A stretch of 37,612 nt of DNA from an uncultured Bacteroidia bacterium. GTDB lineage: Bacteria > Bacteroidota > Bacteroidia > Bacteroidales > F082. The notes below the pieces were generated by a model, which saw only the letters and a list, made by a program, of their open reading frames with translations, had not been told where the DNA came from and ran no database searches. Of this stretch, positions 10,198 through 31,701 are shown piece by piece. Numbering within the stretch: the first letter of the stretch is position 1; every line of letters begins with the position of its first letter. A program made the translations under genes and the position numbers. The DNA lies in contig CADCML010000022.1 in the NCBI GenBank assembly GCA_902802535.1, forward strand, positions 1 through 37,612. Direction: 5' to 3'.

Positions 10198-13100
10198 ATG
10201 AAATTCAAGTTCACCGCATTATCTCTCATCCTGCTTTCCGCCATGGCATTGCAAGCCCAGACGCGCGAATTCACTTTCAACAACACCAATCGGAATGAAG
10301 GTCTCTCCATTGAGCAAAGCACCCGCTCTAACCTTAGTATGCGCCACACGCTCAATCAGTTACAGATTCTTAACATCACCGACAACGGCTATACAGGCGA
10401 CATCCTGCAAGGCGGTTCCGGCATCGCTTTGCCTGCCAATCCTGGCGAACCCAACCTGCCCGTTTTCAGTCGTTTCGTGGCCGTCCCCAACGGTGCTACA
10501 GCCCATATCGAGATGGGTTATCGCAGCATGACCACCATTCAGAATGTGGACTTGCTGCCAGCTGCACCCATCAAGTTCGATACCGACGACAGCCCCAACA
10601 CCTACGAGAAGAACACGAGCATCTACAACAGGAACGCCTTCTTCCCCGAGCAGCCTGTTTCGGTTTCCGAAACTTTCAGCCTACGTGGTGTGCAAACTGT
10701 TGCCATCAGCGTGACGCCTTACCAATACAACCCCGTCACCAAAGAGTTGCGCGTCTATGACGACCTTCAATTCGACGTGCGCTTCGACGGCGGCAACGGC
10801 GAGTTTGGCGACAACCGTCTGCGTTCGCCCTACTGGGACCCCATCCTCATGCAGAATTTAGCCAACTACAACCAACTTCCCGAAATCGATTATGAAGCCC
10901 GTATGCAGGAATGGGTGAACAACCGTCCCACGGGCTGCGAATACCTCATTGTCATCCCCAACAACGAGAGCTTCCGCCAATATGCCAACCAGCTGAGAGA
11001 CTACCGCATCCAGCAAGGTATCCTCACCGAAGTGAAGAGCCTCAGCGACATGGGCTGCACCTCCACCGACCAGATGAAGTCCTACTTCCATAATGCCTAC
11101 AACACTTGGGACATCCCGCCCGTTGCGGTACTTCTTTTGGGCGACCACAACGCCAACATGGCGAACGGCATCCCCGCCGAATACACCTACCACTCGGCAA
11201 GCTACGGCAACTGCATCACCGACAATGGTTACGCTGACGTCACGGGCGACAACCTGCCCGAGATGACTTTCTGCCGCCTCGTGGCAGCCAACGCCAACGA
11301 AGCCCAAATGATGGTGAGCAAGCAGCTCGAATATGAATACACCAACCCGAACATGAACGCCTCCACCTACGACCAACCCATCACGGCCTTAGGCTGGCAA
11401 ACCGAACGTTGGTTCCAGATTTGCTCTGAAGTCGTGGGCGGTTACTGGCGCGACCACGGCAAGAACCCCGTGCGTATCAACGCCATTTATTCGGGCACTC
11501 CTGGCAACAGTTGGTCGAGCAACCAAAACACCTATATGGTCGTCAACTACTTTGGTCCCAACGGAATGGATTACATTCCTGCCACCCCTTCGGAGCTTGG
11601 CGGCTGGACGGGCGGCACTGCTTCACAAGTCGTGAATGCCGTCAACAGCGGTTGCATGTTGCTCCAGCACCGCGACCACGGCTACTACCAAGGTTGGGGC
11701 GAGCCTGACTTCAGCACCAGCCACGTAACACAGATGAACAACGTCGGCAAAATGACCTTCGTCAACACCATCAACTGCCAAACCGGCACCTTCGACCATA
11801 CCCCTGAATGTCTCATCGAGGCCTTCATGCGCCGCACTTCAAACGGCCAAAACGCTGGTGCGGTGGGCTGCATCGGACCTACGCAGACCTCGTATTCTTT
11901 CGTCAATGACGCTTATGCATGGGGCTTGTACGACCAATACGATCCGCAGTTCATGCCCGACTATGGCCCTTTCGCCAACTACGAAGGCAACTGGAGACCC
12001 GCTTTCGGCAACGTGGCCGGCAAATATTTCCTGCAACAGAGCTCATGGCCCTACAACCCTGACAAAAAGGCCATCACCTACAAGATGTTCACCGCCCACT
12101 GCGACGCTTTCCTGACGCTGTACACACAGGTGCCCACCTCCATGACCGTCAACCATCCGACGCAAATCACGGCGACCACCACCAGCATCAACGTGACCGC
12201 CCCGCAAGGTGCCATCATCGCCTTGACTCGCGACAACAACATCCTTGCCGTAGCCACCGCCACCGGCAACTCACAAAGCATCACTTTCCAGGCACAACCT
12301 TCCAATACCAACATCACCATTGTGGCCACCAAGCAAGACAAGCTCCGCTACGTGGGCACCATCCACGTCATCAGCGAACCTTCGCTCACCTTGACCCAAG
12401 TGACACCTCGTGATGCCAACGGCAACCAACAACTCGAATACGGCGAGCAGTCGTCGTTCGACATGACCATCAAGAACGTTGGCGACCAAGCTTCGACGCT
12501 GGCCAACGCCACCCTCAGCACCCATACGCAAGAGTACGTCACCATCAATCAGAACACAACCACCATTCCGTCGTTGAATCCCAACCAAGCCACTGACTTG
12601 ACGGAGGTCTTCGACATCACCGTGGCCGACAACGTGCCCAATGACACCCGCCTCGAATTCACCCTCACGATGGTCGGCGGCAACCACACTTGGACACAAG
12701 ACTTCCATTTCAATGCCTTCGCACCCAACCTGAAGGTTTCCGATAAGATGACTGTCAACGACAACGGCCCCGAAAAAGGCAACGGCAACGGTCGCCTCGA
12801 CCCAGGTGAAAACGCTGAAATCATCTTCTCCTATGCCAACAATGGCGGTTCGGGAGTCAACAATGTGACGGCCACCTTGACCACGGCCACACAACAGTAC
12901 ATCACCATCGGCAGTCCCGCTGTCACTACAGATGTTGTCGGTGCGGGCGAAAACGTCGAAGTGACCTTCAACGTAAGCGTAGCATCGACCATGCCAAGAG
13001 GAGAGGAAGCCCAGTTTACGCTTCATGTCGCAGCAAGCCACTATGCCGACGAATGTAGCTTTGCCCATCGCGTGGGTCTTGACTATGTCAACTTCGAGAA

Positions 13101-14961: not shown

Positions 14962-15016
14962 TTGAAAACTACAACGAAATTATACATAATATTGAAAACC
15001 AACAAAATAAAACAAG

Positions 15017-18000
15017 ATGAATAAATTAGCCAAGACAATTGCGTTTGCCCTATTATTGTCGGTAATCCCTACAAGAATTTGGGCTCAAGACTACATGTCG
15101 AACCAAGCACAAGCGGTCATTAAGTCCCTTGAGGCCAACATGACCCAAAATGCCCAAATCAGGGATCATGAAAACGGATTCCTTTTCAACGTTTTTGAAA
15201 TTGAGAATGTGGAGGAACGCATTCAGTTAGCGTCAGCACTTGCCACGAGCGACATCTGGCTATGTAACCCGACTGAAAATCCTGGTGAATTGTTCATCAG
15301 ACCCAACGGCTACCACGAAGACATCCCGATTTATGCCGAGTTCGACTATCTGAGAATGACGCTTAGGGAAGAATACCAAGCAGCGTCGATGTTGCCCAAA
15401 GAGGAGTTCCGCGAAATCCTCAACTCATGGGCAAACAATATCAGCAACGACTACTACAACTTCCTGATTGCCGACTACCTTGACCGTGCCAACCATTGCA
15501 TGGATGCAGAACCTTTCTGCACCTCAGATGTTTATACTTTCCCATCAAATAACAGTGGTTATTCATGGTCAGGGCCAAACTACGGATGCTTGGGCAGCTC
15601 ACCCACGAACAAACATTCATTCTGGTATTACATGAGAATCGGTGTTGCGGGCAACATCACCATCAAGATTGAAGCTCCTTTCGATGTTGACTTCGCCCTT
15701 TGGGGACCTTTCACCGACCAGATTACCCCATGTCCTACCGCAGCAGGACAAACAGGTTTATTGACAGCAGCTTGTTCCAGTTGCCCCAACAACACGTCAA
15801 GCCCGAACTTCTATCCTTCCGGCAACCTTCACGATTGCAGTTTCAGTGCACAATCATACGAATATGCCCATGTTGTAAACGGACAAGTAGGTCAATACTT
15901 TATACTCCTTATTACCAACTACAACGGAGGCAGCGGCAACATCACTTTCCAGAAATACGCTGGTGATGGCGAAACCGACTGTGGCATCCTGCCTCCTTTG
16001 GTGGACAACGACGGCCCTTATTGCGTAGGTCAGACCATTCACTTGACTGCACAAGGACAAGCGGGTGCCACCTATAGCTGGACGGGTCCCGCCGGATTCA
16101 CCTCAAACCAACAGAACCCCACCCGTCCGAACTGCACCATGAACATGGCTGGCACCTACACCTGCACCATCACCGTTGGCAGCTCGAGCAACAGCGCTGA
16201 CACTCAGGTAGTCATCTATCCACAACCTACGGCTAACTTCAACTATACCACTGTCTGTCAAGGCAACGCCACACAGTTCACCAGTACCTCAACCACCAAT
16301 CCGGCAGGACAACAGATGACCTACCAATGGAACTTTGGCGACGGACAAACCTCGACGCTACAGAATCCCACGCACACATACCCCAATGCCGGCACTTACC
16401 AAGTGACCCTCACTGTGAGTTGCGGCAACGGCCTCTGCACCAATTCAAGAACCCAAGCCGTCACCGTGTATGCCGAACCTGCGGCCAATGCCGGCCCTGA
16501 CCAAACCATCCCCTACGGCAGCACAGCCCAACTGAGCGGCTCAGGCGGTGCAGGAACCTTCAACTACCACTGGGAACCCGCCAACATGGTGACCAATCCC
16601 AACAACCAAAACACGCAAACTGTGGCCTTGACCCAAGACCAGACCTATACCCTCACCGTCACCAACCCGCAAGGCGACTGCTCCAGCTCCGACCAAGTGA
16701 CCATCCACATCAGCGGCAACGCCATGACCGTGAATGCCACGGCTACCCCCAACAGCATCTGCGATGGCAGCACCACCCAACTGCAAGCCAACGCCGGCGG
16801 TGGCACAGGCAACTTCACTTATTCGTGGACACCGACCACAGGTCTTAGCAATCCCAACATCTACAACCCCATAGCCACCCCGACGCAAACCACCACCTAC
16901 ACCTGCCACGTCAGCGACGGGCAGACTTCACAGGATGTCAGCGTGACCGTCACCGTCCACTATGCCGGCTACAGCGAGGAGACCCATTACATCTGCCCCG
17001 ATGGTAGCTACGAATGGCACGGCCAAACCTACAGCGATGAAGGCGACTACGAATTCCCGACCACGACCCAATACGGCTGCGATAGCATCATCACCCTGCA
17101 CCTGCGTTATTACGAAACTTACGACGAAACCACCATTGAGGCGGCCATTTGTGAAGGCGAAAGCTACTATTTCTACGGCATCAATTACACCAACTCCGTC
17201 CAAACCTCACACACCCTGCAAACCATCCATGGCTGCGACAGCATCATAAGATTAGACCTTAAGGTTTGGCCTGAAAACCAAATCACTGAGCTTCCGGTCA
17301 GCCTTTGCCCTGAGCAGCTGCCATACTACTATGAAGGAGATCCCTTCGAAATCCCGCTCTATGCAGGGCTTCACATCTTCCTTCTGGAAGACATTCACGG
17401 CTGCGACAGCACCGTTTGGGTGGATATTGATGTCAGTGACTACTACATTCCGCCCGTCCAGACTGAATATGTGTGCTATACCGCAGGCGAAACCCCAACT
17501 TACATTTGGAATCCCATAGGTGCATTTGAATTCGAACTCCACGAAACAGGTCTCTACACCGACACGCTGCCCACCTCAGCCTGCGACGGCATCTTCCGCC
17601 TCGACCTGAACTTCCTGGAGAAGCCTGAACCCGTACACATCTACGACACCGTTTGCAACACCTACAGCTGGTATGTCGAAGGCCAACTCATCGGAACCTA
17701 CGATGACGACAAGGAAGCCGAATACCACATTCCGCTGACCCCCTATCCTTGCTCCAAAGACTATTATCTCCACCTCAAGGTGAACCACGAAAGCGTCAAC
17801 AACACCATCGTCATCGACGGTAACGACCCCTATTCGCTGCCACCCGACATGACCCAACTTTGTGACCAATACGACTGGCAATTCGGATGGGATGGCGAGA
17901 CATACACCTTCACGGGCAACACCGGCCCCGAAGGCGTCACCAAAACCATCCTAACGCAACAAGGCTGCGATAGTATTGCTACTTTGATTATCAAGAATAT

Positions 18001-18664
18001 GAAATATACGCCTGTTCCCGAGCCCATCAAGCCAAACGAGTCTTCGACCATTGTTTTTGGCTTGCCCGAGACCGACTCCAGTGTAACTGATACCGCCTTT
18101 GCTGCTGCAGTAGTGACCAGCACCGAGTTCTTCTCCTTCCAATACACCTTCTTTATTGAAGAAAGCAATCCTGAATGTGTTTGGAATGATTGCAAGTGGA
18201 CCATCAGCGAGCCTTCATGGGCCATCGAGCCGAGCCTAACGCCGACGCTCTCCCTCAACGGTAGGTATTACAGCGAATGTACGGTACATGTGGCCGACCG
18301 CCAAGAAGACTTTGTGGTGCTCACCGCCACCATCGACAACGGATGCGGCAGCGAAGAACGCAGGTTCTACCTCAAGTCGTCGTTCCTCGATGTTGACGAG
18401 AACAGCAACGACCCGATCAATGTCAACATCGTGCCCAACCCCAACAACGGCCAGATGCGCCTCGACTTCGAGAACATGGAAGGCCGCACCGCCGTCAAGG
18501 TGTTCGACATGACTGGCAACCAGATTGACGCCTTCGAAACCAACGTCAGCTCAAGCCGATACAACTATGACTACACTATGAAACACTATGCCGAAGGCAT
18601 CTACTTCTTCGTCATTTCCAACAACAACCGCGTGTTGACCAAGAAAGTCGTCATCATCCGATAA
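15017..18664 (+). CDS. Large PKD/Ig-repeat surface protein A (adhesin-like), T9SS cargo
   Basis: The function is unknown; architecture says secreted surface protein. It has 1215 residues. Signal peptide 1 to about 24. An N-terminal domain unique to this protein and its neighbour (about 25-325; it contains a pre-peptidase-like segment, IKIEAPFDVDFALWGPF). An Ig-like domain (about 330-400; DGPYCVGQTIHLTA), a PKD domain (about 415-485; WNFGDGQTS and HTYPNAGTYQVTL), and two further Ig-like domains (about 490-655). Six cysteine repeats follow (about 656-1000), most ending GCDS-x-x-x-L. A module shared with two neighbours lies at about 1025-1130 (TSTEFFSFQY to RFYLKSSF), then a type A T9SS domain (about 1135-1215, VPNPNNG to KKVVIIR). 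It lies 55 bases after the C25 gene without an obvious promoter. Binding to host or sibling proteins is inferred only. Confidence 0.85.
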   Translation: MNKLAKTIAFALLLSVIPTRIWAQDYMSNQAQAVIKSLEANMTQNAQIRDHENGFLFNVFEIENVEERIQLASALATSDIWLCNPTENPGELFIRPNGYHEDIPIYAEFDYLRMTLREEYQAASMLPKEEFREILNSWANNISNDYYNFLIADYLDRANHCMDAEPFCTSDVYTFPSNNSGYSWSGPNYGCLGSSPTNKHSFWYYMRIGVAGNITIKIEAPFDVDFALWGPFTDQITPCPTAAGQTGLLTAACSSCPNNTSSPNFYPSGNLHDCSFSAQSYEYAHVVNGQVGQYFILLITNYNGGSGNITFQKYAGDGETDCGILPPLVDNDGPYCVGQTIHLTAQGQAGATYSWTGPAGFTSNQQNPTRPNCTMNMAGTYTCTITVGSSSNSADTQVVIYPQPTANFNYTTVCQGNATQFTSTSTTNPAGQQMTYQWNFGDGQTSTLQNPTHTYPNAGTYQVTLTVSCGNGLCTNSRTQAVTVYAEPAANAGPDQTIPYGSTAQLSGSGGAGTFNYHWEPANMVTNPNNQNTQTVALTQDQTYTLTVTNPQGDCSSSDQVTIHISGNAMTVNATATPNSICDGSTTQLQANAGGGTGNFTYSWTPTTGLSNPNIYNPIATPTQTTTYTCHVSDGQTSQDVSVTVTVHYAGYSEETHYICPDGSYEWHGQTYSDEGDYEFPTTTQYGCDSIITLHLRYYETYDETTIEAAICEGESYYFYGINYTNSVQTSHTLQTIHGCDSIIRLDLKVWPENQITELPVSLCPEQLPYYYEGDPFEIPLYAGLHIFLLEDIHGCDSTVWVDIDVSDYYIPPVQTEYVCYTAGETPTYIWNPIGAFEFELHETGLYTDTLPTSACDGIFRLDLNFLEKPEPVHIYDTVCNTYSWYVEGQLIGTYDDDKEAEYHIPLTPYPCSKDYYLHLKVNHESVNNTIVIDGNDPYSLPPDMTQLCDQYDWQFGWDGETYTFTGNTGPEGVTKTILTQQGCDSIATLIIKNMKYTPVPEPIKPNESSTIVFGLPETDSSVTDTAFAAAVVTSTEFFSFQYTFFIEESNPECVWNDCKWTISEPSWAIEPSLTPTLSLNGRYYSECTVHVADRQEDFVVLTATIDNGCGSEERRFYLKSSFLDVDENSNDPINVNIVPNPNNGQMRLDFENMEGRTAVKVFDMTGNQIDAFETNVSSSRYNYDYTMKHYAEGIYFFVISNNNRVLTKKVVIIR

Positions 18665-18724
18665 TTTGGGCGACACAATAATATTCGTTTGCATTGAGTT
18701 ATACAAAACAACACATAAACTGAG

Positions 18725-21655
18725 ATGAACAGATTCATAAAAGCCATATTCGCTATTCTGCTGTTGACGGCCATTCCCCTGAAACAGTGGGCACAAACTC
18801 CTTACAGGTCATACGCAGACGAGGGCATCGTCTTGAACTTCTTTGAAATCGACAACTACGATTTCAGATTATACCTATTATATAATATACATCAAGACGA
18901 GCGATTCGTCCTCATGCCCGAAGACGAGAATGGCTTGTTCATCCTCACGCCTGAAAGCGACGGACAAGAAGAGGATTTTCTTGAAACGTTTGAGGCTTTC
19001 TACAATAATGTCTCCAACGAGTTCAGGCTCATCGACAAGGTTTTCCTGCAAGACCTTGTCACACGATGGAAAGCGAGCGTTCCGCCCACATATTTCACCT
19101 CCATCACGATGGACCTTGCCCTCAACAGGGCCATTACCCTCAACAACCATTGTGTGGACTCCGACCCCTTCTGCACCTCCGACGTCATCCAGTTTGTGGC
19201 TGCCAACACTTCGCAAACAGCCGACCAGCTTGAAGGTCAAGATTTTGACGACGGCTGCATCGGCAGTTCCTACAATCCGTCATGGTATCACATGAGAATC
19301 AACACGCCCGGACAGTTCATCATCCACATGGAAGGCCGCGACCCAGATGTTTCCTCCATCGAAAGAGACATCGACTTTTGCATGTGGGGGCCCTACCTCG
19401 ACCCGACAGTACCCTGCGTGAGCCAGTTGACCACAAACAAAATCATCGACTGCAACTATTCCTCCCATTTTTCTGAGGACATATTCTTGGGTTTCCCAGA
19501 GAATGAGCACTATCACCAAGCCGACCATGGAACCGTCAATTACCACATGCCGGAAACAGGTGAATATTACATCCTGATGATTACCAATTTCTCGCGCCAG
19601 CCTTGTGTCATCACCTTCACCAAGACTGAAGGCTCGGGGCCTGGCACCACTGACTGTGGTATTCTGCCTGGCATTGCCGCCAATGACGGCCCTTATTGCG
19701 TTGGCGAAACCATCCATCTGACCGTCACCACACAAGCGGGTGCCACTTATACCTGGACTGGTCCCAACGGATTCACCTCCAACGTGCAGAACCCTGTCAT
19801 TCCCAACTGCACCTATGAAATGGGCGGCACCTACACCTGCGTGACCGCTGTGGATGGACAAACGACCACCGGATCTACTGAGGTCGTCATTTACCCCCAA
19901 CCCGTGGCTGACTTCAATTTCACCAGTGTTTGCGAAGGCGAAATCACACAGTTGACCAGCACAGCCGATACGGATCCTTCGGGCCTCGAAATCACCAACT
20001 ATTATTGGGACTTCGGCGACGGCCAAACCGCCGAAGGGGCCACTGCGGCCCACACCTACGCCAGTGCAGGCGAATATCAAGTGACCCATACTGTAGCGAC
20101 TGGTAATGGCAGATGCGTTGATGAAGTCACGAAGACCGTAAGCGTTTACGCCATCCCCGTGGCCACTGTGTCGGTCAGTCCCAGTTCGGTCATCTATGGC
20201 GGCGTTGCCACCCTCACTGCCATTGTGGACACACCCGGCAACTTCACCTTCCACTGGGAGCCTGCCAACATGGTCACCAACCCCAACAGTCAGACCACGC
20301 AGACTGTCCCCATCCAAGAAACACAAGTTTTCACCGTCACCATAACCAACACCCAAGGCGGCTGCACCAGCACGATACAAGGCGTGGTCAGCATGGCTGG
20401 TTCCAACCTGACCGCCACTGCCACCGCCGACCAATATGAAATCTGCGAAGACGCATCGACGACACTCCATGCCCTACCCCAAAACGGCACGGGTTACTAC
20501 ACCTATAGTTGGACTCCCGCCGAATGGCTCAGCAGTACCACCGTGCAGCATCCTGTGGCCACCCCGCCCGTCGGAACGACCACGTTCACCTGCACCGTCG
20601 GCGACGGCCTCACCACCCAAATCGTCAATGTGAGCATTGTCGTGCTTCCCAAAGACGAAAATGAAATTGATGAAACCGTTTGCAACCAATTCATTTGGAA
20701 TCCCGAAGGGCATACCATCGTCGAAACCGACCACCCCGGCAACAGTTACGACGCTTCGGGCAGCTACTACAGAATATACGCCAACCAATACGGCTGCGAC
20801 AGTTTGGTCAAGCTGGACCTTACCGTGAACTACGACCACACCAATGCCACCCAATCCTACACCAGCGAATGTGATGTCATCCATTTTGACTGGTTTGGCA
20901 CCATCACCGACTTGGAGGAAAACGGCGTTTACACCTTCAACGGCGAAACCGTTAACGGCTGCGACAGCATCATGACTGTGACCGTCGGGAACATGGCCTA
21001 CTCGCCCCAACCCAGCACCATCCAAGCTGAGGAGGACGCAATTGTTTTTGCCTTGCCCGAAAATCCCAATTTACCAGACACCGCCCTTGCAGCCGCAGTG
21101 GTGACCAGCACTGAGTTCTTCTCGTTCCAATACCAGTTCAAAGTGGTGGAAACCACGCATAGCCAAAGCGAGTGGAACACATGCATTTGGACCATCAGCA
21201 AGCCATCGTGGGAAATCGAGTTCGACCCCATTCCCGTCAAGAACGCCGATGGCATGTTTGAGAGCCAGTGCACCGTTTATGTGGCCGACCGCGACGAGGA
21301 TTATGTCGTTCTTTCGGCTACGGTGAAAAACGACTGCGACAGCCTGACACGGCGGTTCTACCTTAAGTCGTCGTTCCTTGGCGTTGACGAGCACAGCAGC
21401 ATGGAATCAGCCGTGAGCATCGTGCCCAACCCCAACAACGGCCAGATGCGCATCAACTTTGAGGATATGGAAGGCCGTACTGCCATCCGCGTGTTCGATA
21501 TGACTGGCAACCAAATCGACGCCTTCGAAACCAACATCAGCGCAAGCCGCCAAAGCATCGACTACACCATGAAACCCTATACCGAAGGCATCTATCTCTT
21601 TGTCTTCGCCAACCATAACCGAGTGTTCACCAAGAAAGTCGTCATCATTCAATAA
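18725..21655 (+). CDS. Large PKD/Ig-repeat surface protein B (paralogue of A), T9SS cargo
   Basis: This 976-residue protein is a shorter paralogue of the one before it. The order is the same: signal peptide (1 to about 24, LKQWAQ), N-terminal shared domain with CMWGPYLDPTVPC, an Ig-like domain starting NDGPYCVGETIHLT (about 320), a PKD domain (about 426-490; WDFGDGQTAEG), two Ig-like domains, only two cysteine repeats instead of six, the FFSFQY-RFYLKSSF module (about 785-888) and a type A T9SS domain (about 895-976). Near the 3' end the DNA of the two genes is almost the same over long blocks, which indicates fairly recent duplication or gene conversion. It starts 60 bases after its paralogue and continues the same run. 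The function is unknown; an adhesin or structural surface protein is plausible. Confidence 0.85.
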   Translation: MNRFIKAIFAILLLTAIPLKQWAQTPYRSYADEGIVLNFFEIDNYDFRLYLLYNIHQDERFVLMPEDENGLFILTPESDGQEEDFLETFEAFYNNVSNEFRLIDKVFLQDLVTRWKASVPPTYFTSITMDLALNRAITLNNHCVDSDPFCTSDVIQFVAANTSQTADQLEGQDFDDGCIGSSYNPSWYHMRINTPGQFIIHMEGRDPDVSSIERDIDFCMWGPYLDPTVPCVSQLTTNKIIDCNYSSHFSEDIFLGFPENEHYHQADHGTVNYHMPETGEYYILMITNFSRQPCVITFTKTEGSGPGTTDCGILPGIAANDGPYCVGETIHLTVTTQAGATYTWTGPNGFTSNVQNPVIPNCTYEMGGTYTCVTAVDGQTTTGSTEVVIYPQPVADFNFTSVCEGEITQLTSTADTDPSGLEITNYYWDFGDGQTAEGATAAHTYASAGEYQVTHTVATGNGRCVDEVTKTVSVYAIPVATVSVSPSSVIYGGVATLTAIVDTPGNFTFHWEPANMVTNPNSQTTQTVPIQETQVFTVTITNTQGGCTSTIQGVVSMAGSNLTATATADQYEICEDASTTLHALPQNGTGYYTYSWTPAEWLSSTTVQHPVATPPVGTTTFTCTVGDGLTTQIVNVSIVVLPKDENEIDETVCNQFIWNPEGHTIVETDHPGNSYDASGSYYRIYANQYGCDSLVKLDLTVNYDHTNATQSYTSECDVIHFDWFGTITDLEENGVYTFNGETVNGCDSIMTVTVGNMAYSPQPSTIQAEEDAIVFALPENPNLPDTALAAAVVTSTEFFSFQYQFKVVETTHSQSEWNTCIWTISKPSWEIEFDPIPVKNADGMFESQCTVYVADRDEDYVVLSATVKNDCDSLTRRFYLKSSFLGVDEHSSMESAVSIVPNPNNGQMRINFEDMEGRTAIRVFDMTGNQIDAFETNISASRQSIDYTMKPYTEGIYLFVFANHNRVFTKKVVIIQ

Positions 21656-21678
21656 CTTTAAAATAAAATCTTCAAACG

Positions 21679-22758: not shown

Positions 22759-23685
22759 ATGAGACACCATTCAACCATAGCAGTACGAATCTTGTTCGTT
22801 TCAGTTTTTGCTTTATTGACCTTAACCGCCACGGCGCAAAAAAACAAGCAGTTCAGGAAAGCCATTTCCTCTCCGCGCGACCATATCGAGTCGAGCGACG
22901 CCAAATGGAACGTCGGCATCCTTGGAGGCGGCAACCTCACCACATGGCTGCATTTCCACAGCTATGCAGCCTCCGACTGGTACCTGAAAAACTACAAAAT
23001 ATTCGACGGCTTCACCAACAGTTTGGGCTACTTCGGCGGCATCGGCGTGGAGCGTATGCTCAGAAAAGACCTGTCCGTCGGACTCAACGCCATCTATGCG
23101 AAGCACAACATACAGTTGGCCTTCGTGGACGACCAGTTCCCCTATCAGTGGGATCCCGTCACACAGCAAGTCGTTTACGGTCAAATAATGAAAGGCTTCA
23201 AGGCTTCCTACAGCACCGTCGAGGTCTATTTGCCCGTCACCTATTACATAGGGTTGGCTTCCAAGAGCAGCATTGTTCCTTATGCCTACGTTGCGCCTCG
23301 GTTTTCGCATATCCTGCCCCTGTCAAGCAACTATATGCGATATGCCGCCACCTACACCGACAGCCAAAACAAGCCTCTCCCTGGCTATGAAACAAGATAC
23401 GATACCGTGGATTTCAACCGTTCGACCTATCGGATGTTCAATGTGGGCGCCACGCTCGGCATCGGCTCGCTTTTCAGACTCAATACAAACAATTATTATT
23501 TTCTTTTCAAGCTCGACATTTCGGCCAACTTCAACGCCATCCCGACCTTCAAGAAAGGAGAAGTCGTGAACAACGAGTTCAACCACCTGCGCTACAGCAC
23601 CGATGCCCACGCCACACTGACCATCATGCTTCCGCTCAAGAAACAACTTAAGGGTGCTTGCATGGACTGGGGCGAGTATGATTGA
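22759..23685 (+). CDS. Outer-membrane beta-barrel protein (PorT-like)
   Basis: The 308-residue product has a signal peptide (1 to about 27, LTATAQ), then a short basic linker. A series of amphipathic strands starts at about 48 (WNVGILGGGNLTTWLHF) and continues to the end. Features of the outer-membrane beta-barrel/PorT-like family include GGIGVERMLRKDLSVGLNAIY near residues 94-114, alternating hydrophobic residues and aromatic girdles. It ends GEYD rather than in the usual aromatic residue, but the penultimate strand is present. About eight to ten strands can be counted by eye. PorT-type barrels take part in T9SS function or simply form small pores; this one lies between cargo genes rather than in a T9SS machinery operon. 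The role is therefore uncertain. It is possibly a partner of the upstream lipoprotein. Confidence 0.72.
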   Translation: MRHHSTIAVRILFVSVFALLTLTATAQKNKQFRKAISSPRDHIESSDAKWNVGILGGGNLTTWLHFHSYAASDWYLKNYKIFDGFTNSLGYFGGIGVERMLRKDLSVGLNAIYAKHNIQLAFVDDQFPYQWDPVTQQVVYGQIMKGFKASYSTVEVYLPVTYYIGLASKSSIVPYAYVAPRFSHILPLSSNYMRYAATYTDSQNKPLPGYETRYDTVDFNRSTYRMFNVGATLGIGSLFRLNTNNYYFLFKLDISANFNAIPTFKKGEVVNNEFNHLRYSTDAHATLTIMLPLKKQLKGACMDWGEYD

Positions 23686-23748
23686 GTTTGAAGTTTAGAG
23701 TTTATAGATAGGAGTTGGAGGGTGGGAAAAACAAAAAAATTAGTTATC

Positions 23749-26700
23749 ATGAAGAAAAAACTACTATTTTCGATTTTATTAGCTTGCCTTGCATTGCCGA
23801 TGGTGGCCCAAAACACCTCGACGCAAGGCAAGGAGTTTTGGCTCTCTTTCATGCACAACGGCTTCAAGGACCACTCCTTGGGCGGTTGGGTCATCAACCA
23901 GGTGCTCATCAGCGCCAAGCGCGACTGCACGGGAACGGTTTCGAACCCTTTGACCGGCTGGTCGCGGGAATTCAGCGTCAACGCCAACAACATCACGACC
24001 ATCGAGATTCCTGAAGCGCAAGGCTACCACAACGGCAACGAGCACGAAGTCATCTTAGAAAAAGGCATCAAAGTGTCGGCTACCGACACCATTTCGGTGT
24101 ATTGCACCAACATTGCATACGTGTCGTTCGACGCCTCCTTCGTGCTGCCCGTCGAGAGCTTGGGCGATGAATATATCGTCCAAAGCGCCAACCAGTCAGT
24201 GTTCGGCTCCAACTCGTATGTTTCGAACAACGAAACCACCGCTTTCCTCATCGTGGCCACGGAAGACAACACGGAGGTTGACATCACCCCTACGGTGAAC
24301 ACCTTGGGCGGACATCCGGCCAACCAGACCTTTACCATCACGATGAACGCGGGCGAAACCTATCACGTCAGGTCGACACGATCGGGTGCCAGCGATGCCC
24401 GCGACCTGAGCGGGACCCATATTCTTGCCGCCGACTGCAAGCGCATTGCCGTCTTCAACGGCAACACCGTAACTTGCATTCCCATCGACCAAGGCAACGG
24501 CTACGACCATGTGTTTGAGCAAGCCATGCCCTTGCGCTCGTGGGGCAAGAACTTCGTGGTAACCAGCTCCAAAAACCGCAACCGCGACTTCATTAAGATT
24601 ACATCGAGCGCAAACGACAACACCGTCACCATGAACGGCGAGCCCTTGGTCACGCTGCAGGCCATGGAGTCGTACACTTTCTCCATGTGGGAATCGTCAG
24701 GTTCTTGCTACCTCCAAACCACCCAACCCAGCGCCGTCTACCTGTACAACAATTCCAGCTACGACCGCTATTTGGGCGACCCGTCGATGGTGTGGATTGC
24801 CCCCGTGGAGCAGCGCATCAACGATGTGACCTTCTCTACTTTCGACCATCCCAACATTGAGATTGAGACCCATAGTGTCAACATCATTGTCTACTCGGAA
24901 GACATCGCCAATGTGTTTTTCGACGGCCAACAGGTTTCACCTTTAATGTTCCATCACGTCAATGGCAACGACGATTATAGTTACGCCAGGATGGACATCA
25001 GCCACGGCGTACACCGCATCACCTGCGAAAACGGATTCAACGCCCATGTTTACGGCTTCGGCGATGCCAAGGGATATGCCTATTTGGTGGGCTCCAACGC
25101 CAAAAACCTCAGCACCAGCCTGACCATCAACGACGAACTTGTACTTCCCGAAGGAACTTACCGTTTTTGCGCCAACCATGAGATCACCTTCTATGCCGAG
25201 GTCAACTTTAACGATTACGAACTCGTTTGGGACTTCGGCGACGGCACCACCAGCACCGAAAACCCCGCGACACACACCTACCTCGAGCCGCGCATCTACA
25301 ACGCTTCCCTATCCATCACCACCAACGAGGGAGGTTGCACAGGCTCAGCCAGCAACATCACCTATTTCAACATCGATGCCTCGCAAGATTACCATATCTA
25401 CAACGATGAGGTGTGCGAGGGTGAGCTTTATTCTGGTTTCGGATTCAATAACGTACACATCCTCAACGACACCATTCTGGCCCGCTTGCAAGACAACCCG
25501 ATACACAGCGAATGTCAAGACTCTGTGCTGGTTTACATCACCGCCCACCCCAACTACCACATTCCCATCAGCGACAGCCGCTGCTGGACGGGACAGCCGG
25601 GCGTATATGACGACCATGGATTCAGTTTCATCTACGACCATCCTGACGTTTACGAACGCCAATTGGCACTGCAATCGGTCAACGGTTGCGACAGCATCCT
25701 CACGCTGACCTTGACCGTGGGCGACTTTGAGGTGCTCGAAACCGAAACCCAATACAAATGCTATGAGGACACTCCTTCCTTCCTCTGGTTAGCCAACAAC
25801 CAGACCTACTACGAGGACGGATACTACACAGACACCTTGCCCTCAGGCGAGTGTTACGCCATCTACAGCCTTGACCTGCACTTCATGCAAATTCCTGAAG
25901 AGACCCACCTGTACGATACGACATGCACGCCCTACGACTGGGAAATTTCGGGCCATACCTATCATTTTGAAGTTTCTGGCGACTATTATCACGATGACAA
26001 CCTGGCGCCTTTCCCCTGCTCAAAGAGGACTTGGCTGCACCTCGTCGTCGACAAAGCCATAGATAATCCGATACCCGAGGTCGTCGAGAGCTGCAACGAA
26101 TACACTTGGAACAACGTAACCTACACCGAACCAGGATATTATTCCGCCACTTTGGAGGCTGGCTATTGCGACAGCATCGTACATCTCAACCTGACCCTTA
26201 AATATACACCCAAGCCTGTGATTGCCTACGCTGAGGACGACTACTACAAAGACGGCGACACCCTCGCCGTCATTACCAACACCGAGTTCTTCTCGTTCCA
26301 GTACGACTTTTTCATTGAAGACTCGATTGGCCACTTCAACGATTGGGACTCCTGCGTGTGGCGCATCAGCAAGGACACTTGGATGTTAGAGCCGAATCCC
26401 TCTGAATACCAGAGCGAAACCAAAAAAAGTTATTGCAGGGTTTATGTCGGCGAGCGCGACGATGCCCCTGTGGAATTGAGTTGCACCGTTTACAACCACC
26501 ACTGCGAGCCTTACAGCATCAAGAAAAGATTCTACCTCAAATCGTCGTTCTTCGGCATTGACGAACAGGATGCCTTCCGCTCCGACTTCAACATCGTGCC
26601 CAACCCCAACAACGGCGAAATGGAGTTCTACTTCGAACAACTGACCGGCAAAGTGACCATCAAGGTGTATGACATGCGGGGTTCCGTCATCGACAACATC

Positions 26701-26826
26701 GAAACGTACAATTACTTAAACTCCAACACTTTACATTACAACCTAAATCACGTTTCCCCTGGTATCTATTTCTTTGTCGCCACGGCCAAGGAAGGCACCA
26801 TCGCGAAAAAAGTCATCATCGAATAA
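23749..26826 (+). CDS. IgGFc-binding-like adhesin with PKD domain, T9SS cargo
   Basis: I place the start at 23749 (MKKKLLFSILLACLALPMVAQ), which gives a good signal peptide; an in-frame GTG at 23722 is too far upstream. The 1025-residue product has an N-terminal domain (about 22-470) like the IgGFc-binding protein N-terminus found in human FCGBP and in many bacterial proteins: GKEFWLSF, then LGDEYIVQS, TAFLIVATEDNTEVDI and LSGTHILAADCKRIAVFNG. A PKD domain (about 480-545; WDFGDGTTSTENPATHTY) and five cysteine repeats (about 550-815) come next. The module shared with adhesins A and B follows at about 837-940 and a type A T9SS domain at about 945-1025. This likely binds a surface or mucus glycoprotein, but bacterial members of the domain family have no proven ligand. 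It lies 63 bases after the barrel gene. Confidence 0.83.
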   Translation: MKKKLLFSILLACLALPMVAQNTSTQGKEFWLSFMHNGFKDHSLGGWVINQVLISAKRDCTGTVSNPLTGWSREFSVNANNITTIEIPEAQGYHNGNEHEVILEKGIKVSATDTISVYCTNIAYVSFDASFVLPVESLGDEYIVQSANQSVFGSNSYVSNNETTAFLIVATEDNTEVDITPTVNTLGGHPANQTFTITMNAGETYHVRSTRSGASDARDLSGTHILAADCKRIAVFNGNTVTCIPIDQGNGYDHVFEQAMPLRSWGKNFVVTSSKNRNRDFIKITSSANDNTVTMNGEPLVTLQAMESYTFSMWESSGSCYLQTTQPSAVYLYNNSSYDRYLGDPSMVWIAPVEQRINDVTFSTFDHPNIEIETHSVNIIVYSEDIANVFFDGQQVSPLMFHHVNGNDDYSYARMDISHGVHRITCENGFNAHVYGFGDAKGYAYLVGSNAKNLSTSLTINDELVLPEGTYRFCANHEITFYAEVNFNDYELVWDFGDGTTSTENPATHTYLEPRIYNASLSITTNEGGCTGSASNITYFNIDASQDYHIYNDEVCEGELYSGFGFNNVHILNDTILARLQDNPIHSECQDSVLVYITAHPNYHIPISDSRCWTGQPGVYDDHGFSFIYDHPDVYERQLALQSVNGCDSILTLTLTVGDFEVLETETQYKCYEDTPSFLWLANNQTYYEDGYYTDTLPSGECYAIYSLDLHFMQIPEETHLYDTTCTPYDWEISGHTYHFEVSGDYYHDDNLAPFPCSKRTWLHLVVDKAIDNPIPEVVESCNEYTWNNVTYTEPGYYSATLEAGYCDSIVHLNLTLKYTPKPVIAYAEDDYYKDGDTLAVITNTEFFSFQYDFFIEDSIGHFNDWDSCVWRISKDTWMLEPNPSEYQSETKKSYCRVYVGERDDAPVELSCTVYNHHCEPYSIKKRFYLKSSFFGIDEQDAFRSDFNIVPNPNNGEMEFYFEQLTGKVTIKVYDMRGSVIDNIETYNYLNSNTLHYNLNHVSPGIYFFVATAKEGTIAKKVIIE

Positions 26827-26856
26827 CGACACCGACAATCATTAATACTTCATACT

Positions 26857-29800
26857 ATGAGAACATCATTACCTAAAATGCTTGCCATTGCAGCATTGGC
26901 ATTCATTGCCAACCTGGCTATGGCACAAACCTTTGATTACCCCGTCAAAGGGAAACAAGGCTTCAACCTGACGGAAAAAACCCGCGGCGGGCTGCACATC
27001 AGCTACAACTTGGGCCATATGTCGTTGAGCCAAATCGACTACCGTGGCGAAGTGATGTCGGAAATCAGCATCGCGTCCATCACCATCCCGGCTGATGCCG
27101 GTAGCCCGAACCTCCCGACGGACAGCCGCATGATGGCCATCCCACAAGGCGCTACGGCCAGTTTGCGCGTGGTCAGCGTTGAGAAAGAAACGCTCCACAA
27201 CGTCAACATCGCCCCTGCCCTTCGCATCCAAGCGGAGAGCGAGGAACCCGACATGAACTATGTGAAAGACATGGCCATTTACGGCAAGAACGCCTTCTAT
27301 CCCGCCGAGCCTTTCACCATGGGCAACTCCTACATCCGTGGTGTCGATGCCGTCACCGTGGCCATCACACCTTTCCAGTACAACCCTGTCACAAAGGACT
27401 TGATTGTCTACACCAACATCGAGCTAGCCGTCGAGTTTGAAGGCGGCACAGACCATTTCGGTGAAGACCGCCTGCGTTCGCCCTACTGGGACCCCATCCT
27501 CGCCGCCGAGCTGCTGAACTACGACCAGCTGCCCGTCATCGACTATGAGGCACGTATGCAAGAATGGCTGCGCGACGACAAGGATGGTGCCGAGTACCTC
27601 ATCATCACGCCTAACAACGACGCTTGGGCCGAATACGCCAACCAACTGAAAGACTACCGCATCCGCCAGGGCATCATCACCAAAGTCTACCGCTTAGACC
27701 AAATGCCCGCCAACAACACCGCCCAAATGAAGAGTTGGTTCCACAATGCCTATCACACTTGGGACATCGCCCCCGTGGCCATCTGTCTGCTTGGCGACCA
27801 TGGCACCGACATGGGCCAATACATTCCCGCAGAGACCACCTATCACGCTTACAGCGGCAGCTGCATCACCGACAACTTTTATGCCGATGCCCAAGGTAAT
27901 GACAACTTGCCCGACATGGTCTTTTCGCGTCTTGTCGCGCAAAATGCCAGCGAATTACCCATTTTTGTGAGCAAACAACTCGAATACGAATACATCAATC
28001 CCAACATGGACCCTGACTTCTACACCCGCCCCATCACTGCATTGGGCTGGCAGACAGAACGTTGGTTCCAACTTTGCTCTGAAGTGTTTGGCGGCTACAT
28101 GCGCAACCATGGCTACGACACCAACCGCATCAACTGCATCTACAGCGGCACACCCGGCAGCCAATGGTCAAGTGCCCAAAACACCAATCAGGTGGTCAAC
28201 TATTTCGGTCCCAACGGATTAGGTTACATTCCTGCCACGCCGTCAGAACTCGGAGATTGGAACAACGGCTCGCCGCAATTGGTGGTGCAAGCCATCAACG
28301 ACGGCGCATTCTGGCTGCAGCACCGCGACCACGGCTTGGAAGAAGGCTGGGGAGAACCGGCTGTGCGCAACAATCATATCAACCAGATGAACAACGTGGG
28401 CAAGCTGCCCTTTGTGATGTCCATCAACTGCCAAACCGGCATGTTCAACTACTCAGGCTCAGGAGGCAACTGCTTCACGGAGAAATGGATGCGTCGCACC
28501 TATGACGGTCAGAATGCCGGTGCCGTAGGTGTGCTCAGTCCCACTGAGGTTTCCTACTCCTTCGTCAACGATGCTTTCGTTTGGGGCGTTTACGACCTCT
28601 TCGACGGCGACTTCATGCCTACCTACGGTCCCTACGCCGAAAACACCGGCAACTGGATGCCCGCTTTCGGCAACGTGGCTGGCAAGTATTTCTTGGCCCA
28701 AAGCTCTTGGCCTTACAACACTGACGACAAGGACATCACTTACACCATGTTCACCGCCCACTGCGACGCTTTCCTGCGTATTTACACGCAAGTGCCGCAA
28801 ACGATGGAAGTCGTTCATCCCGAAGTGGTGTTGGCGGGTATTGGTGAGGTCAGCATCACGGCACCTGAAGGTTGCGTAATCAGCCTTGTCATACCGAATG
28901 ACGAAGGCAGTTGGGACATCCTCGCTGTAGCTGAAGCCACCGGAGAACCACAAACCATCGAGTTTGAACCTCAGTACCCCCCGACCGAAATCAACCTTGT
29001 CATCACGGGCCAAAACTACTTGCGTTATGAGGCCATCATGAGCGTCATTCCCGCCAATGGTCCTTATATCGTTTACGACAGCAAGGTCATCCACGACAGC
29101 AACGGCAACGGCAATCTTGACTTCGGCGAAACCATCAGCCTCGACGTCACCTTGAGGAATGTCGGCAGCGACGCGATGGAAGCTTTCGAGGCCGTGTTTG
29201 AGACTGATTCGGAATACATCACCATCACCAATGGCACTGCTTCATTTGAGGGAATGAGCCCCAACGCCTTGCAGACCGTTGAGGACGCCTTCACGCTCAC
29301 CGTGGCCGGCAACGTGCCCGACAACACGACCAACCGTTTCACCATCACCGTGACCAACGGCGACGATACCTATATCAGCAACCTCACCATGAAAGCCTAC
29401 GCCCCCGTCTTCGAGCTTGGTGGCATGAGCATCACTGAAATCGAAGGCAATGGCAACGGCCGCCTCGAAGCAGGCGAGACCGCCACGCTCAGCTTCCCCA
29501 TTGGGAACACGGGCCATGCCGATGCTGCCGCCACTTTGGTCACACTCAACCTGCTTTCGCCTTACATCACCCTTGAGGAAAACACCGTCAGCAGCGACTT
29601 CCTGAACATCGGCGAAACCATGACAGCTACCTACAACATCAGCGTGAGCGAAACGACACCAATGGGCTACATCTGCCCCTTGACGTTAGAAGTCATTTCG
29701 GGACAATACCTCACCCAACAAGACTATGAAGCCAAGGTCGGACTCGTCATCGAGGACTTTGAAACGGGCGAATTTGGTGAAGGCTGGAACAACGATGCCA

Positions 29801-31701
29801 CTCGTCCGTGGCGTTTCGTCACCGAAGACCCGTACGAAGGCCAGTATTGCCTGAGGTCGGGCTCCATCGGCAACAATGCCACCACCACCCTGACCCTAAC
29901 CCATGAAGCCAGCTCAGCCGACACCATTTCCTTCTATTATAAGGTGTCGTCGGAAAACGGCTACGACAAGCTCCATTTCTACATCGACAACCAAGAGAAA
30001 GAGAACTGGTCGGGGTCTGTCAACTGGACCAAAGCTGCTTACCGCGTCAATCCAGGCCGACACACCTACAAGTGGACTTACACCAAAGACGCTTACCAAA
30101 CCGGAGGCAGCGACTGCGCTTGGATTGACTTCGTAGGCCTGCCCGCCGACCGCATCATGGCTGGTACTGCCGGCAACGATGTGAGCGTTTGCGAAGGCAC
30201 TGAAGCCCAAATTGTGGGTTATGCCATGCACTATGACAACCTGCTGTGGACCACCTCAGGCGACGGCACCTTCGACGATGCCACCAGCTACATGCCGATT
30301 TACTCGCCTGGTGCTCAAGATATTGCCAATGGTTCAGCCACATTGACCATTACCATCAACGGCGAAGGTGAAACCATCACCGATGAGATGACGGTGTTTA
30401 TCATTCAAAATGTCGTGATTGAAAACGCTCTCGTGGACGTGAATTATTGCGCCACCGATGCACCGCAACCTATTGCTGTGAGAGTTACGGGCGACTATGT
30501 CTCCTTCCAATGGCTGACCGATGGCGATGGTGAGTTTGCCGATGCCACCGCCTTGGAAACCACCTACACGCCTGGCCTTGGCGACATTGCCAATGGCGTT
30601 ACCCTTACTGCGTTTGCTGTTTCGCCTGGATGCGGTTCATTCACCTACGAGTATCCGTTTGAGATGAACCCGATGCCTGAAATGACCTTGGCTACCGATG
30701 CCATCCAACTCTGCGATGGTGAGAATGTTTACATGAACTTCAATCTATATGGTATCGAAGACTATGGCTATGTCATCATCAACGGTGCAGAATACGGCCT
30801 GGATAGCAACAGCACTTCCATTGACCTTGGACATCTTCCAGTTGGCGAACATGTCTTTAACATTACTGAAATCACCAGTAAGTGCAGCACCACATTCGAA
30901 GAAGGTGAGTTCACTTTCACCGTCAACATGAATGCAGCACCAACTTACACCGTCAGCGAAACAAATGTAATTTTCTGCGAAGGCGAAAGCATTGACATTG
31001 CGTTCAGCTTTAACGGCACGGCTCCCTTCACGGTAGAGGCTTACGGCATCGACGGGTTTATCTCTGAAAGCGAAAGCTTCACCATGACGTTTGACGCCCC
31101 TGCATCTTTCATCGTTACCAATGTGACCGATGCAAATGGTTGCAGCACGATTACACCTGCGCACTCTGTAAACATAGAGATGGTACCTACCGTCGCCCAG
31201 CCAGAAATCAGTGGCGACACCGAACTGGATGTGCGCCTCGTGCCCACCAGCACCTATACTATCGACAATGATGTGATAGTCAGCTACACCCTCGAACCCG
31301 AAGAGGCCGGAACGCTGACGCCTGCCAACGACGGCAAGTCGGCAATGATCACCTGGAGCGACACCTACAAGGGCGAAGTCGTGCTGACTGCCACACCGTC
31401 CGCCGAATGTAACAACGGAGGCAACTCACTGACCATCAGCGTAAAGAACTCCACCGACATCGACGAGTTTGGCGTGAAGGCCAGCCTCTACCCCAACCCG
31501 ACCAATGGCAACGTCACCATCGAAGCTGACGGTATGCAACGCCTCACCGTGGTGAACGAACTCGGTCAGGTGGTGTATGATGCCGAGGTGCGCAGCGACA
31601 TCGTAACGCTTAACATGGGCCAGTTTGGTGCGGGCGTGTTCATGGTACGTATCTACTCCAACGAAGGTGTCAGTGTGAAGCGCGTCAGCGTTGTCAGATA
31701 G
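26857..31701 (+). CDS. Gingipain-like C25 cysteine peptidase B, T9SS cargo
   Basis: A 1614-residue paralogue of the first C25 gene, at the other end of the run. Signal peptide 1 to about 24 (LAMAQ), propeptide to about 235, C25 domain about 245-640 starting EYLIITPNND. The dyad is H492 (LQHRDHG) and C525 (NCQTGMF), again 33 apart, followed by CFTEKWMRR. Ig-like/CARDB-like domains (NGNGNLDFGE and NGNGRLEAGE) and the jelly-roll domain (about 960-1105) match the first protein. It differs after about 1110: no GCDS repeats, but two GDG-F Ig-like units and two domains starting 'LCDGE' and 'FCEGES'. The pre-sorting module (about 1445-1530; ISGDTELDV, LEPEEAGTLTP) and T9SS type A domain (about 1540-1614) follow. 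The insertion differences suggest different substrate or location specificity. A strong terminator follows 21 bases later. Confidence 0.9.
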   Translation: MRTSLPKMLAIAALAFIANLAMAQTFDYPVKGKQGFNLTEKTRGGLHISYNLGHMSLSQIDYRGEVMSEISIASITIPADAGSPNLPTDSRMMAIPQGATASLRVVSVEKETLHNVNIAPALRIQAESEEPDMNYVKDMAIYGKNAFYPAEPFTMGNSYIRGVDAVTVAITPFQYNPVTKDLIVYTNIELAVEFEGGTDHFGEDRLRSPYWDPILAAELLNYDQLPVIDYEARMQEWLRDDKDGAEYLIITPNNDAWAEYANQLKDYRIRQGIITKVYRLDQMPANNTAQMKSWFHNAYHTWDIAPVAICLLGDHGTDMGQYIPAETTYHAYSGSCITDNFYADAQGNDNLPDMVFSRLVAQNASELPIFVSKQLEYEYINPNMDPDFYTRPITALGWQTERWFQLCSEVFGGYMRNHGYDTNRINCIYSGTPGSQWSSAQNTNQVVNYFGPNGLGYIPATPSELGDWNNGSPQLVVQAINDGAFWLQHRDHGLEEGWGEPAVRNNHINQMNNVGKLPFVMSINCQTGMFNYSGSGGNCFTEKWMRRTYDGQNAGAVGVLSPTEVSYSFVNDAFVWGVYDLFDGDFMPTYGPYAENTGNWMPAFGNVAGKYFLAQSSWPYNTDDKDITYTMFTAHCDAFLRIYTQVPQTMEVVHPEVVLAGIGEVSITAPEGCVISLVIPNDEGSWDILAVAEATGEPQTIEFEPQYPPTEINLVITGQNYLRYEAIMSVIPANGPYIVYDSKVIHDSNGNGNLDFGETISLDVTLRNVGSDAMEAFEAVFETDSEYITITNGTASFEGMSPNALQTVEDAFTLTVAGNVPDNTTNRFTITVTNGDDTYISNLTMKAYAPVFELGGMSITEIEGNGNGRLEAGETATLSFPIGNTGHADAAATLVTLNLLSPYITLEENTVSSDFLNIGETMTATYNISVSETTPMGYICPLTLEVISGQYLTQQDYEAKVGLVIEDFETGEFGEGWNNDATRPWRFVTEDPYEGQYCLRSGSIGNNATTTLTLTHEASSADTISFYYKVSSENGYDKLHFYIDNQEKENWSGSVNWTKAAYRVNPGRHTYKWTYTKDAYQTGGSDCAWIDFVGLPADRIMAGTAGNDVSVCEGTEAQIVGYAMHYDNLLWTTSGDGTFDDATSYMPIYSPGAQDIANGSATLTITINGEGETITDEMTVFIIQNVVIENALVDVNYCATDAPQPIAVRVTGDYVSFQWLTDGDGEFADATALETTYTPGLGDIANGVTLTAFAVSPGCGSFTYEYPFEMNPMPEMTLATDAIQLCDGENVYMNFNLYGIEDYGYVIINGAEYGLDSNSTSIDLGHLPVGEHVFNITEITSKCSTTFEEGEFTFTVNMNAAPTYTVSETNVIFCEGESIDIAFSFNGTAPFTVEAYGIDGFISESESFTMTFDAPASFIVTNVTDANGCSTITPAHSVNIEMVPTVAQPEISGDTELDVRLVPTSTYTIDNDVIVSYTLEPEEAGTLTPANDGKSAMITWSDTYKGEVVLTATPSAECNNGGNSLTISVKNSTDIDEFGVKASLYPNPTNGNVTIEADGMQRLTVVNELGQVVYDAEVRSDIVTLNMGQFGAGVFMVRIYSNEGVSVKRVSVVR

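What the first reader, a model, noticed from the sequence alone, without database searches (positions are those of the whole stretch)
10198..31701. Seven-gene exported protease-adhesin cluster, a candidate undescribed surface system
Seven consecutive same-strand genes with gaps of 23-63 bases, a promoter in front and one strong terminator behind, all encode exported proteins. C25 peptidases lie at both ends, three PKD/IgGFc adhesin-like proteins inside, and a lipoprotein plus beta-barrel in the middle. Five carry T9SS type A signals and share repeat modules. Known gingipain loci do not, to my knowledge, have this arrangement. The peptidases might process the adhesins into a surface complex attached through the lipoprotein/barrel pair. 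The operon and the interaction are inferred.
Basis: partly seen in the sequence, partly recalled or inferred. Interest (0 to 1): 0.75.

Follow-up and report, generated by a model that had tools for sequence, protein, structure and literature searches.

The report
Tail-sharing adhesin and protease gene cluster
A gut bacterium carries seven neighbouring genes for exported proteins in which interchangeable adhesin-like proteins share one unfamiliar tail and travel with a lipoprotein and a small outer-membrane barrel, which looks like a dedicated way to fix adhesins to the cell surface, while the protease genes at the ends come and go.

Summary
The seven genes are real and form a unit, but not quite the one proposed. 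Among 22 homologous loci none shows the same seven-gene order (one, G045, is cut at its 5' end). The kept core is PKD adhesin(s), lipoprotein, barrel and usually an IgGFc adhesin; the C25 peptidases vary.

All three adhesins end in an unnamed ~113-residue module ("ctdx") before the type A T9SS signal. The genome has 149 type A signal matches but 5 strong ctdx copies, and no C25 protein has it (0 of 30). Adhesin-lipoprotein-barrel trios recur at two further sites in the genus. Of 149 genomes, 41 have a strong barrel and 43 a strong ctdx, 41 shared.

Every complete barrel counted (60 of 60) has a cysteine in its short C-terminal tail; SprF and PorG use such a cysteine to bond to GldK/PorK (PMC12635249).

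Best reading: a surface-display module for type A adhesins with exchangeable heads, peptidases accessory. Docking and the disulfide are inferred. It works like SprB-SprF but belongs to neither the SprF nor the PorG family.

The parts
10198..14961 (+). Gene 1: C25 peptidase (C25a) with propeptide, Ig-like C25_C domain, PKD_6-like domain and type A T9SS signal; no ctdx
   Evidence: Pfam/NCBIfam; gingipain R alignment
15017..18664 (+). Gene 2: PKD/Ig adhesin-like protein with ctdx tail and type A signal
18725..21655 (+). Gene 3: PKD adhesin-like protein with ctdx tail and type A signal
21679..22716 (+). Gene 4: lipoprotein of an unnamed family; N-terminal InlB-like repeat and conserved C-terminal part (residues about 131-345)
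   Evidence: model pLDDT 86.5
22759..23685 (+). Gene 5: small outer-membrane barrel (OMP_b-brl_2-like)
23659..23661 (+). Codon of Cys301 in the C-terminal tail of the barrel, invariant in alignment A1
   Evidence: tail cysteine in 60 of 60 complete relatives
23722..26826 (+). Gene 6: IgGFc_binding/PKD adhesin-like protein with ctdx tail and type A signal (GTG start; ATG at 23749 likely)
26857..31701 (+). Gene 7: C25 peptidase (C25b) with propeptide and type A signal; no ctdx
18092..18436 (+). ctdx module of gene 2
   Evidence: 130.8 bits
21080..21427 (+). ctdx module of gene 3
   Evidence: 126.1 bits
26254..26601 (+). ctdx module of gene 6
   Evidence: 129 bits
15434..16006 (+). Exchangeable head module of gene 2
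   Evidence: 79-94% identical to 8 of 43 other heads, at most 46% to the other 35
10130..10159 (+). Hairpin with T-run between the C10 gene and gene 1; terminator or promoter region, undecided
31722..31755 (+). Terminator-like hairpin behind gene 7

Best explanation
The cluster is a surface-display module for adhesins in a rumen/gut Bacteroidales lineage (kin of Candidatus Limimorpha and 'bacterium P3'). Proposed steps: (1) all seven proteins leave the cytoplasm by Sec; (2) adhesins and peptidases cross the outer membrane through the T9SS, whose SprA, PorV, PorU, PorG, PorP and PorK genes were found in this genome; (3) the sortase PorU removes the type A signal, leaving ctdx as the membrane-near end of the mature adhesin; (4) ctdx docks on the lipoprotein/barrel pair, which can hold different heads (PKD, IgGFc and, from another site, choice-of-anchor L); (5) the barrel's tail cysteine tethers the complex on the inner side, perhaps to PorK/GldK; (6) the C25 peptidases are accessory proteases that share the locus but not the tail. 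Shown here: gene content, recurrence of the trio, the shared tail, the conserved cysteine, exchange of heads, presence of T9SS genes. Inferred: every contact, surface location, ligand binding and all functions. About 0.5 for steps 1-4, about 0.2 for step 5 with PorK/GldK.
For: ctdx: 5 strong copies in the genome against 149 type A signal matches. Strong (E<=1e-20) barrel in 41 and strong ctdx in 43 of 149 genomes, 41 shared; one of the two exceptions, G058, has a site II trio, the other, G004, is cut by a contig end. Trio in 14 of 24 regions opened outside site I. Lipoprotein directly before a barrel in 43 of 43 loci. Tail cysteine in 60 of 60 complete barrels, the only cysteine after residue 45 in 45. 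Lipoproteins resemble the surface export signal: Lys at +3 with at least one acid at +4 to +6 in 45 of 49 (PMC5080379). ctdx plus signal modelled as two beta sandwiches. Head exchange. T9SS genes.
Against: No contact was tested. Six regions hold a ctdx adhesin without lipoprotein or barrel (L152, L185, L187, L192, L193, L194), so the pair is not needed next to every one. Below the strong threshold the lists agree less: of 25 genomes with only a weak barrel hit 14 have no ctdx hit, and 4 genomes with a ctdx hit have no barrel hit. All genomes are close kin, so co-occurrence is partly shared descent. A crude control had a cysteine in the last 25 residues in 9 of 34 exported proteins, so its presence alone is not rare. 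The barrel shows no relation to PorG. Tails are closer within a genome than within a site in 6 of 19 cases only. The window lipoprotein has K-M-E-E, not the exact export consensus.
Confidence: 0.5

Rival explanations
1. Gingipain-like protein-degrading cluster: peptidases and adhesins bind and digest dietary or host proteins together, the peptidases also trim the adhesins, and lipoprotein and barrel serve capture of products or protection.
For: C25 catalytic residues kept; same-strand C25 behind the barrel in 23 of 39 loci; C25 domains are better conserved (81-88%) than the adhesins between window and near relatives.
Against: Two loci seen with both flanks have no C25 (G082, G057); trios at sites II and III have no C25 in the fetched regions; peptidases lack the tail.
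Confidence: 0.25
2. Plain neighbours: a growing island of T9SS cargo in which the lipoprotein and barrel have an unrelated role.
For: 149 type A signal matches in the genome, so cargo genes are common; ctdx adhesins without the pair exist.
Against: The same three-gene order at three sites; tail and barrel found in nearly the same genomes.
Confidence: 0.15
3. The barrel is a carrier that replaces PorV for these adhesins, as SprF does for SprB, rather than only an anchor.
For: Dedicated barrel gene beside its cargo, as for type B cargo (PMC12618676, PMC9143113); tail cysteine.
Against: Signals are type A, described as PorV-dependent (PMC12618676); the barrel is not of the PorP/SprF family.
Confidence: 0.1

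Closest known systems
SprB-SprF of Flavobacterium johnsoniae and PG1035-PorP-PorE of Porphyromonas gingivalis (PMC9143113, PMC12618676, PMC12635249; passages read)
   Same: Adhesin-like T9SS cargo with a barrel gene beside it; barrel with cysteine in a C-terminal tail
   Different: Type A, not type B, signals; barrel outside the PorP/SprF family; single tail cysteine instead of Cys-Xaa-Cys; a lipoprotein of an unnamed family instead of PorE; extra ctdx module
PorG (T9SS barrel disulfide-linked to PorK/GldK; PMC12635249)
   Same: Small barrel, single cysteine in the tail as in P. gingivalis PorG and in this genome's own PorG
   Different: No match to the PorG model and no detectable homology; several copies tied to adhesins; separate true PorG in the genome
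Gingipain loci (C25 peptidases with adhesin regions, P. gingivalis; layout recalled)
   Same: C25 catalytic domain, propeptide and type A signal
   Different: Adhesins are separate genes with another tail; lipoprotein and barrel in the core; peptidases optional
SusC/SusD-type surface lipoprotein and outer-membrane protein pairs (recalled)
   Same: Surface-type lipoprotein paired with an outer-membrane protein
   Different: Pfam gave no TonB-dependent receptor or SusD domain for genes 4 and 5; the barrel is about 300 residues

Membership tests
C25 peptidases (gingipain family) | Peptidase_C25 domain over cut-off with catalytic His and Cys | tested here: met
   145 and 144 bits against 23; alignment to gingipain R places a His and a Cys at the matching positions in both (the catalytic role of these residues is recalled)
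C25 peptidases (gingipain family) | Arg- or Lys-specific cleavage | not testable with these tools
   needs an enzyme assay
T9SS type A cargo | TIGR04183 signal at the C-terminus, over cut-off | tested here: met
   genes 1, 2, 3, 6, 7
T9SS type B cargo | TIGR04131 signal | tested here: not met
   not among NCBIfam matches of the seven proteins at E<=0.01
PorP/SprF carrier barrels | TIGR03519 match | tested here: not met
   no NCBIfam match for gene 5; in the genome only the core PorP (189 bits) and a weak hit on contig C10
PorP/SprF carrier barrels | cysteine(s) in the periplasmic C-tail | tested here: inconclusive
   one conserved tail cysteine in 60 of 60, not the Cys-Xaa-Cys of SprF; periplasmic side is assumed
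PorG | NF052316 / DUF6089 match | tested here: not met
   gene 5 has no such match; the genome's PorG is elsewhere; profile comparison probability 1.5
PorG | disulfide to PorK/GldK | not testable with these tools
   needs non-reducing blots
Surface-exported Bacteroidota lipoproteins | C-X-K-(D/E)2-X after the lipid cysteine (PMC5080379) | tested here: inconclusive
   Lys at +3 with one or more acids at +4 to +6 in 45 of 49, two or more in 27 of 49; window member K-M-E-E
SusC/SusD pairs | TonB-dependent receptor and SusD domains | tested here: not met
   no such Pfam match for genes 4 and 5 at E<=0.01

The most novel reading that the evidence does not exclude
A second, independently evolved adhesin-anchoring system of the T9SS: type A adhesins with a dedicated ctdx tail are held by a surface lipoprotein and a small barrel that is disulfide-bonded through its tail cysteine to the moving PorK/GldK track (a GldJ-like gene is present), so that exchangeable heads are carried over the cell surface by the secretion motor without SprF.
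Probability: 0.2. Interest if true: 0.85.

Novelty: new variant of a known kind. Interest (0 to 1): 0.6.

Why it matters
Type A substrates are described as all using PorV, while type B substrates have their own barrels (PMC12618676, abstract and passages). A type A tail that travels with its own lipoprotein and barrel would be a further way to fix adhesins to the surface. If the tail cysteine binds PorK/GldK, the newly described disulfide mechanism would reach another class of barrel. It also gives unnamed families (ctdx, the lipoprotein, this barrel group) one joint, testable role, and shows adhesin heads being exchanged in uncultured rumen and gut bacteria.

Tried and rejected
Exact seven-gene system: not a conserved unit; none of 22 loci shows C25a and C25b around the core, though G045 is cut at its 5' end and could. 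C10 peptidase (6770-10051) as an eighth member: no counterpart seen in the 22 loci.

Wider spread: ctdx in 5 of 393 genomes drawn from the order (three of this genus, two of one other family); the two outside hits have no lipoprotein or barrel of these families beside them (L179, L180). Broad lipoprotein profile in 395 genomes of the class: own genome plus 11 weak hits; the 4 of 11 that I opened are not in such a setting (L213-L216).

Barrel as PorG paralogue: no support. Tails evolving together within a genome: inconclusive, 6 of 19. Control for the tail cysteine: weak, 9 of 34. Head of gene 3: identities to other heads run from 85% down to 34% without a gap, so the two-class pattern holds for gene 2 only.

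ctdx as the 'long' signal of Prevotella intermedia: no; those are 69-82 residues in all and correspond to the CTD itself (PMC11969387, passages). Lipoprotein fold: no PDB match at E<=0.001. ctdx plus signal: generic Ig-like matches.

Literature: no paper in the library holds 'IgGFc-binding' with 'type IX secretion' or 'PorG-like'. Listings were seen; I noticed no title or abstract start there that describes this locus. Subscription papers are largely absent from the library.

Alignment A7 holds a wrong row (adhesin, not barrel) and served no count. C25 counts use a model from two window sequences; a broader one added only opposite-strand ORFs in L144, G034, G054 and G081 and one at the edge of L192. 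My ORF picker let longer antisense ORFs hide real genes; this hid lipoproteins or barrels in L182, L184, L197, L198 and L219 until checked.

Full report
OBSERVATION. The window is contig C22 of a 3.7-Mb assembly in 139 contigs, 85% complete. Seven same-strand ORFs run from 10198 to 31701. Pfam and NCBIfam give, in order: C25 peptidase; PKD/Ig adhesin-like; PKD adhesin-like; lipoprotein; OMP_b-brl_2-like barrel (25 bits, cut-off 27); IgGFc_binding/PKD adhesin-like; C25 peptidase. Five have type A T9SS signals. Both C25 domains keep a His and a Cys aligned to gingipain R. The hairpin behind gene 7 is strong; the promoter before gene 1 is not confirmed.

ORGANISM. A scan of one genome for each of 84,980 species with the barrel alignment gave 43 loci. 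Their titles name Bacteroidales or Bacteroidia assemblies, 'bacterium P3' and Candidatus Limimorpha equi; many name rumen or gut samples (taxonomy).

CONSERVATION. I mapped 22 homologous loci of the genus. The rnf genes lie upstream in 13 and the DUF2807/GntR/membrane/ABC block downstream in 12; 7 show both, and the others are cut or differ. The core of PKD adhesin(s), lipoprotein and barrel, usually with an IgGFc adhesin, is kept. Orthologues of C25a are present in G016 and G021. C25b follows in nine (G045, G030, G056, G033, G034, G054, G059, G081, G065). Shorter C25 genes lie upstream in G044, G029, G073, G071 and G070, and also beside C25a in G016 and G021. G034, G054 and G081 are reduced to one adhesin, lipoprotein, barrel and C25b; there a pair of C25-like ORFs lies on the opposite strand behind. 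The lipoprotein/barrel pair or the barrel is repeated in G082, G016, G056, G080, G033 and G075. In the 43 named loci a lipoprotein directly precedes a barrel in 43 of 43 (ORFs under 150 aa without a match left out), and a same-strand C25 follows in 23 of 39 with enough sequence (22 by script, L131 by hand). G082 and G057 show both flanks and no C25.

SHARED TAIL. The adhesins share a module of about 113 residues before the type A signal, here called ctdx: 125 copies in the 43 loci, 66 with IgGFc heads, 52 with PKD-type heads, 7 other or cut. Of 29 members scanned against Pfam, six families matched one member each at best E 0.0099; no PDB sequence matched. With the signal it is modelled as two beta sandwiches (pLDDT 84.6). 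The own genome has five strong copies and one weak, against 149 matches of the type A signal (150 of 163 candidates scored). At E<=1e-20, 43 of 149 genomes have ctdx and 41 have the barrel, all 41 shared (counted by hand). Of the two exceptions G004 is cut inside the cluster (L220) and G058 has a site II trio (L219). Below that threshold agreement is poorer: 14 of 25 genomes with a weak barrel hit lack any ctdx hit, and 4 genomes with ctdx lack a barrel hit. In the order only 5 of 393 genomes have it. No C25 protein of the 43 loci has it (0 of 30). The tail marks the adhesins, not the peptidases.

SECOND AND THIRD SITES. Following the tail led to a second site in the same genome (L153: adhesin 9749-12391, lipoprotein 12406-13053, barrel 13066-13890). 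The same order is seen in L181, L184, L186, L188, L189, L190, L191, L195, L196 and L219; a gene beginning MRFLYPN (BatA-like, recalled) follows in most of these. A third site, in L182, L197 and L198, has IgGFc-ctdx adhesin, lipoprotein and barrel; L197 and L198 are nearly identical. Of the 24 regions that I opened outside site I, 14 have the trio, 6 have a ctdx adhesin without the pair (L152, L185, L187, L192, L193, L194), one is cut by a contig end (L183) and three are weak or distant hits (L154, L179, L180). The L152 protein has a choice-of-anchor L head.

BARREL CYSTEINE. All 60 complete barrels of the three sites counted (49 from site I, 11 from II and III; some nearly identical; one truncated barrel left out) have a cysteine in the tail: 8 from the end at site I (7 in L144), 20 or 21 at site II, 11 at site III. 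In 45 of 60 it is the only cysteine after residue 45. In F. johnsoniae the tail cysteines of SprF and PorG form a disulfide with GldK Cys343, and the single tail cysteine of P. gingivalis PorG is essential (PMC12635249: abstract, passages, part 1 of the discussion). This genome's PorG also has one tail cysteine, and the genome has PorK and a GldJ-like protein (457.9 bits, cut-off 458.2). The barrel is not detectably related to PorG, so this is a likeness of architecture. A crude control shows that a cysteine near the end is not rare by itself (9 of 34). No model of the barrel was made.

LIPOPROTEIN. No Pfam family covers it; an InlB-like repeat matches in 7 of 29 members. The lipid cysteine is mostly followed by X-Lys and acids, near the surface-export signal C-X-K-(D/E)2-X (45 of 49 with at least one acid, 27 with two or more; PMC5080379 passages). 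The window member has K-M-E-E. Its model is confident (86.5) without a clear structural relative.

HEADS ARE EXCHANGED. The head of gene 2 is 79-94% identical to 8 of 43 other heads and at most 46% to the other 35 (heads under 100 bits left out). In G065 the head is 94% identical while the barrel is 40%. That head class sits in the first adhesin gene of G030 and G022, the only one of G054, and the second of G045, G044, G029, G073 and G065. For gene 3 the identities are graded. By segment, the N-terminal parts fall to 16-24% and the head to 33-42% in some relatives while the neighbouring Ig/PKD part stays at 50-82%. Recombination of exposed heads would give this.

MECHANISM. T9SS genes found: SprA, PorV, two PorU, PorG, PorP, PorK. 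The simplest reading is that PorU cuts off the type A signal, ctdx becomes the end nearest the membrane, and it docks on lipoprotein and barrel. That would explain variable heads on a common tail and the company of the pair. The peptidases would be helpers or passengers. No contact was tested.

KNOWN SYSTEMS. It works like SprB-SprF (PMC9143113, PMC12618676; passages) but fails the tests for that barrel family and for PorG. Gingipain loci share the enzyme family. I rate it a new variant of a known kind.

Noticed in passing
window 6770-10051: C10 peptidase with Spi inhibitor-type propeptide and type A T9SS signal, 146 bases before gene 1, own Bacteroidota-type promoter pattern at 6707; not seen in the 22 homologous loci.
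   Followed up: partly
L155 (G000:C16), 5498-12762: Two adjacent proteins both match the PorU sortase model far over its cut-off, followed by PorV; a GldJ-like gene lies on the other side.
   Followed up: no
G000 (whole assembly): 149 type A signal matches in one 3.7-Mb genome: a very large T9SS cargo set.
   Followed up: no
L152, L185, L187, L194: A further site with ctdx adhesins but no lipoprotein or barrel, beside a gene beginning MI(K)(T/S)T..REIWRIAYPIMLGN (transporter-like) in each.
   Followed up: partly
L096-L099, L102, L144: Pairs of C25-like ORFs of about 1100 aa on the opposite strand behind the reduced loci.
   Followed up: no
window 273-6570 and 31795-37509: Ordinary flanks: RseC-like and rnf genes upstream; DUF2807 protein, membrane protein, ABC ATPase and a PEP-utilising enzyme downstream.
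   Followed up: no
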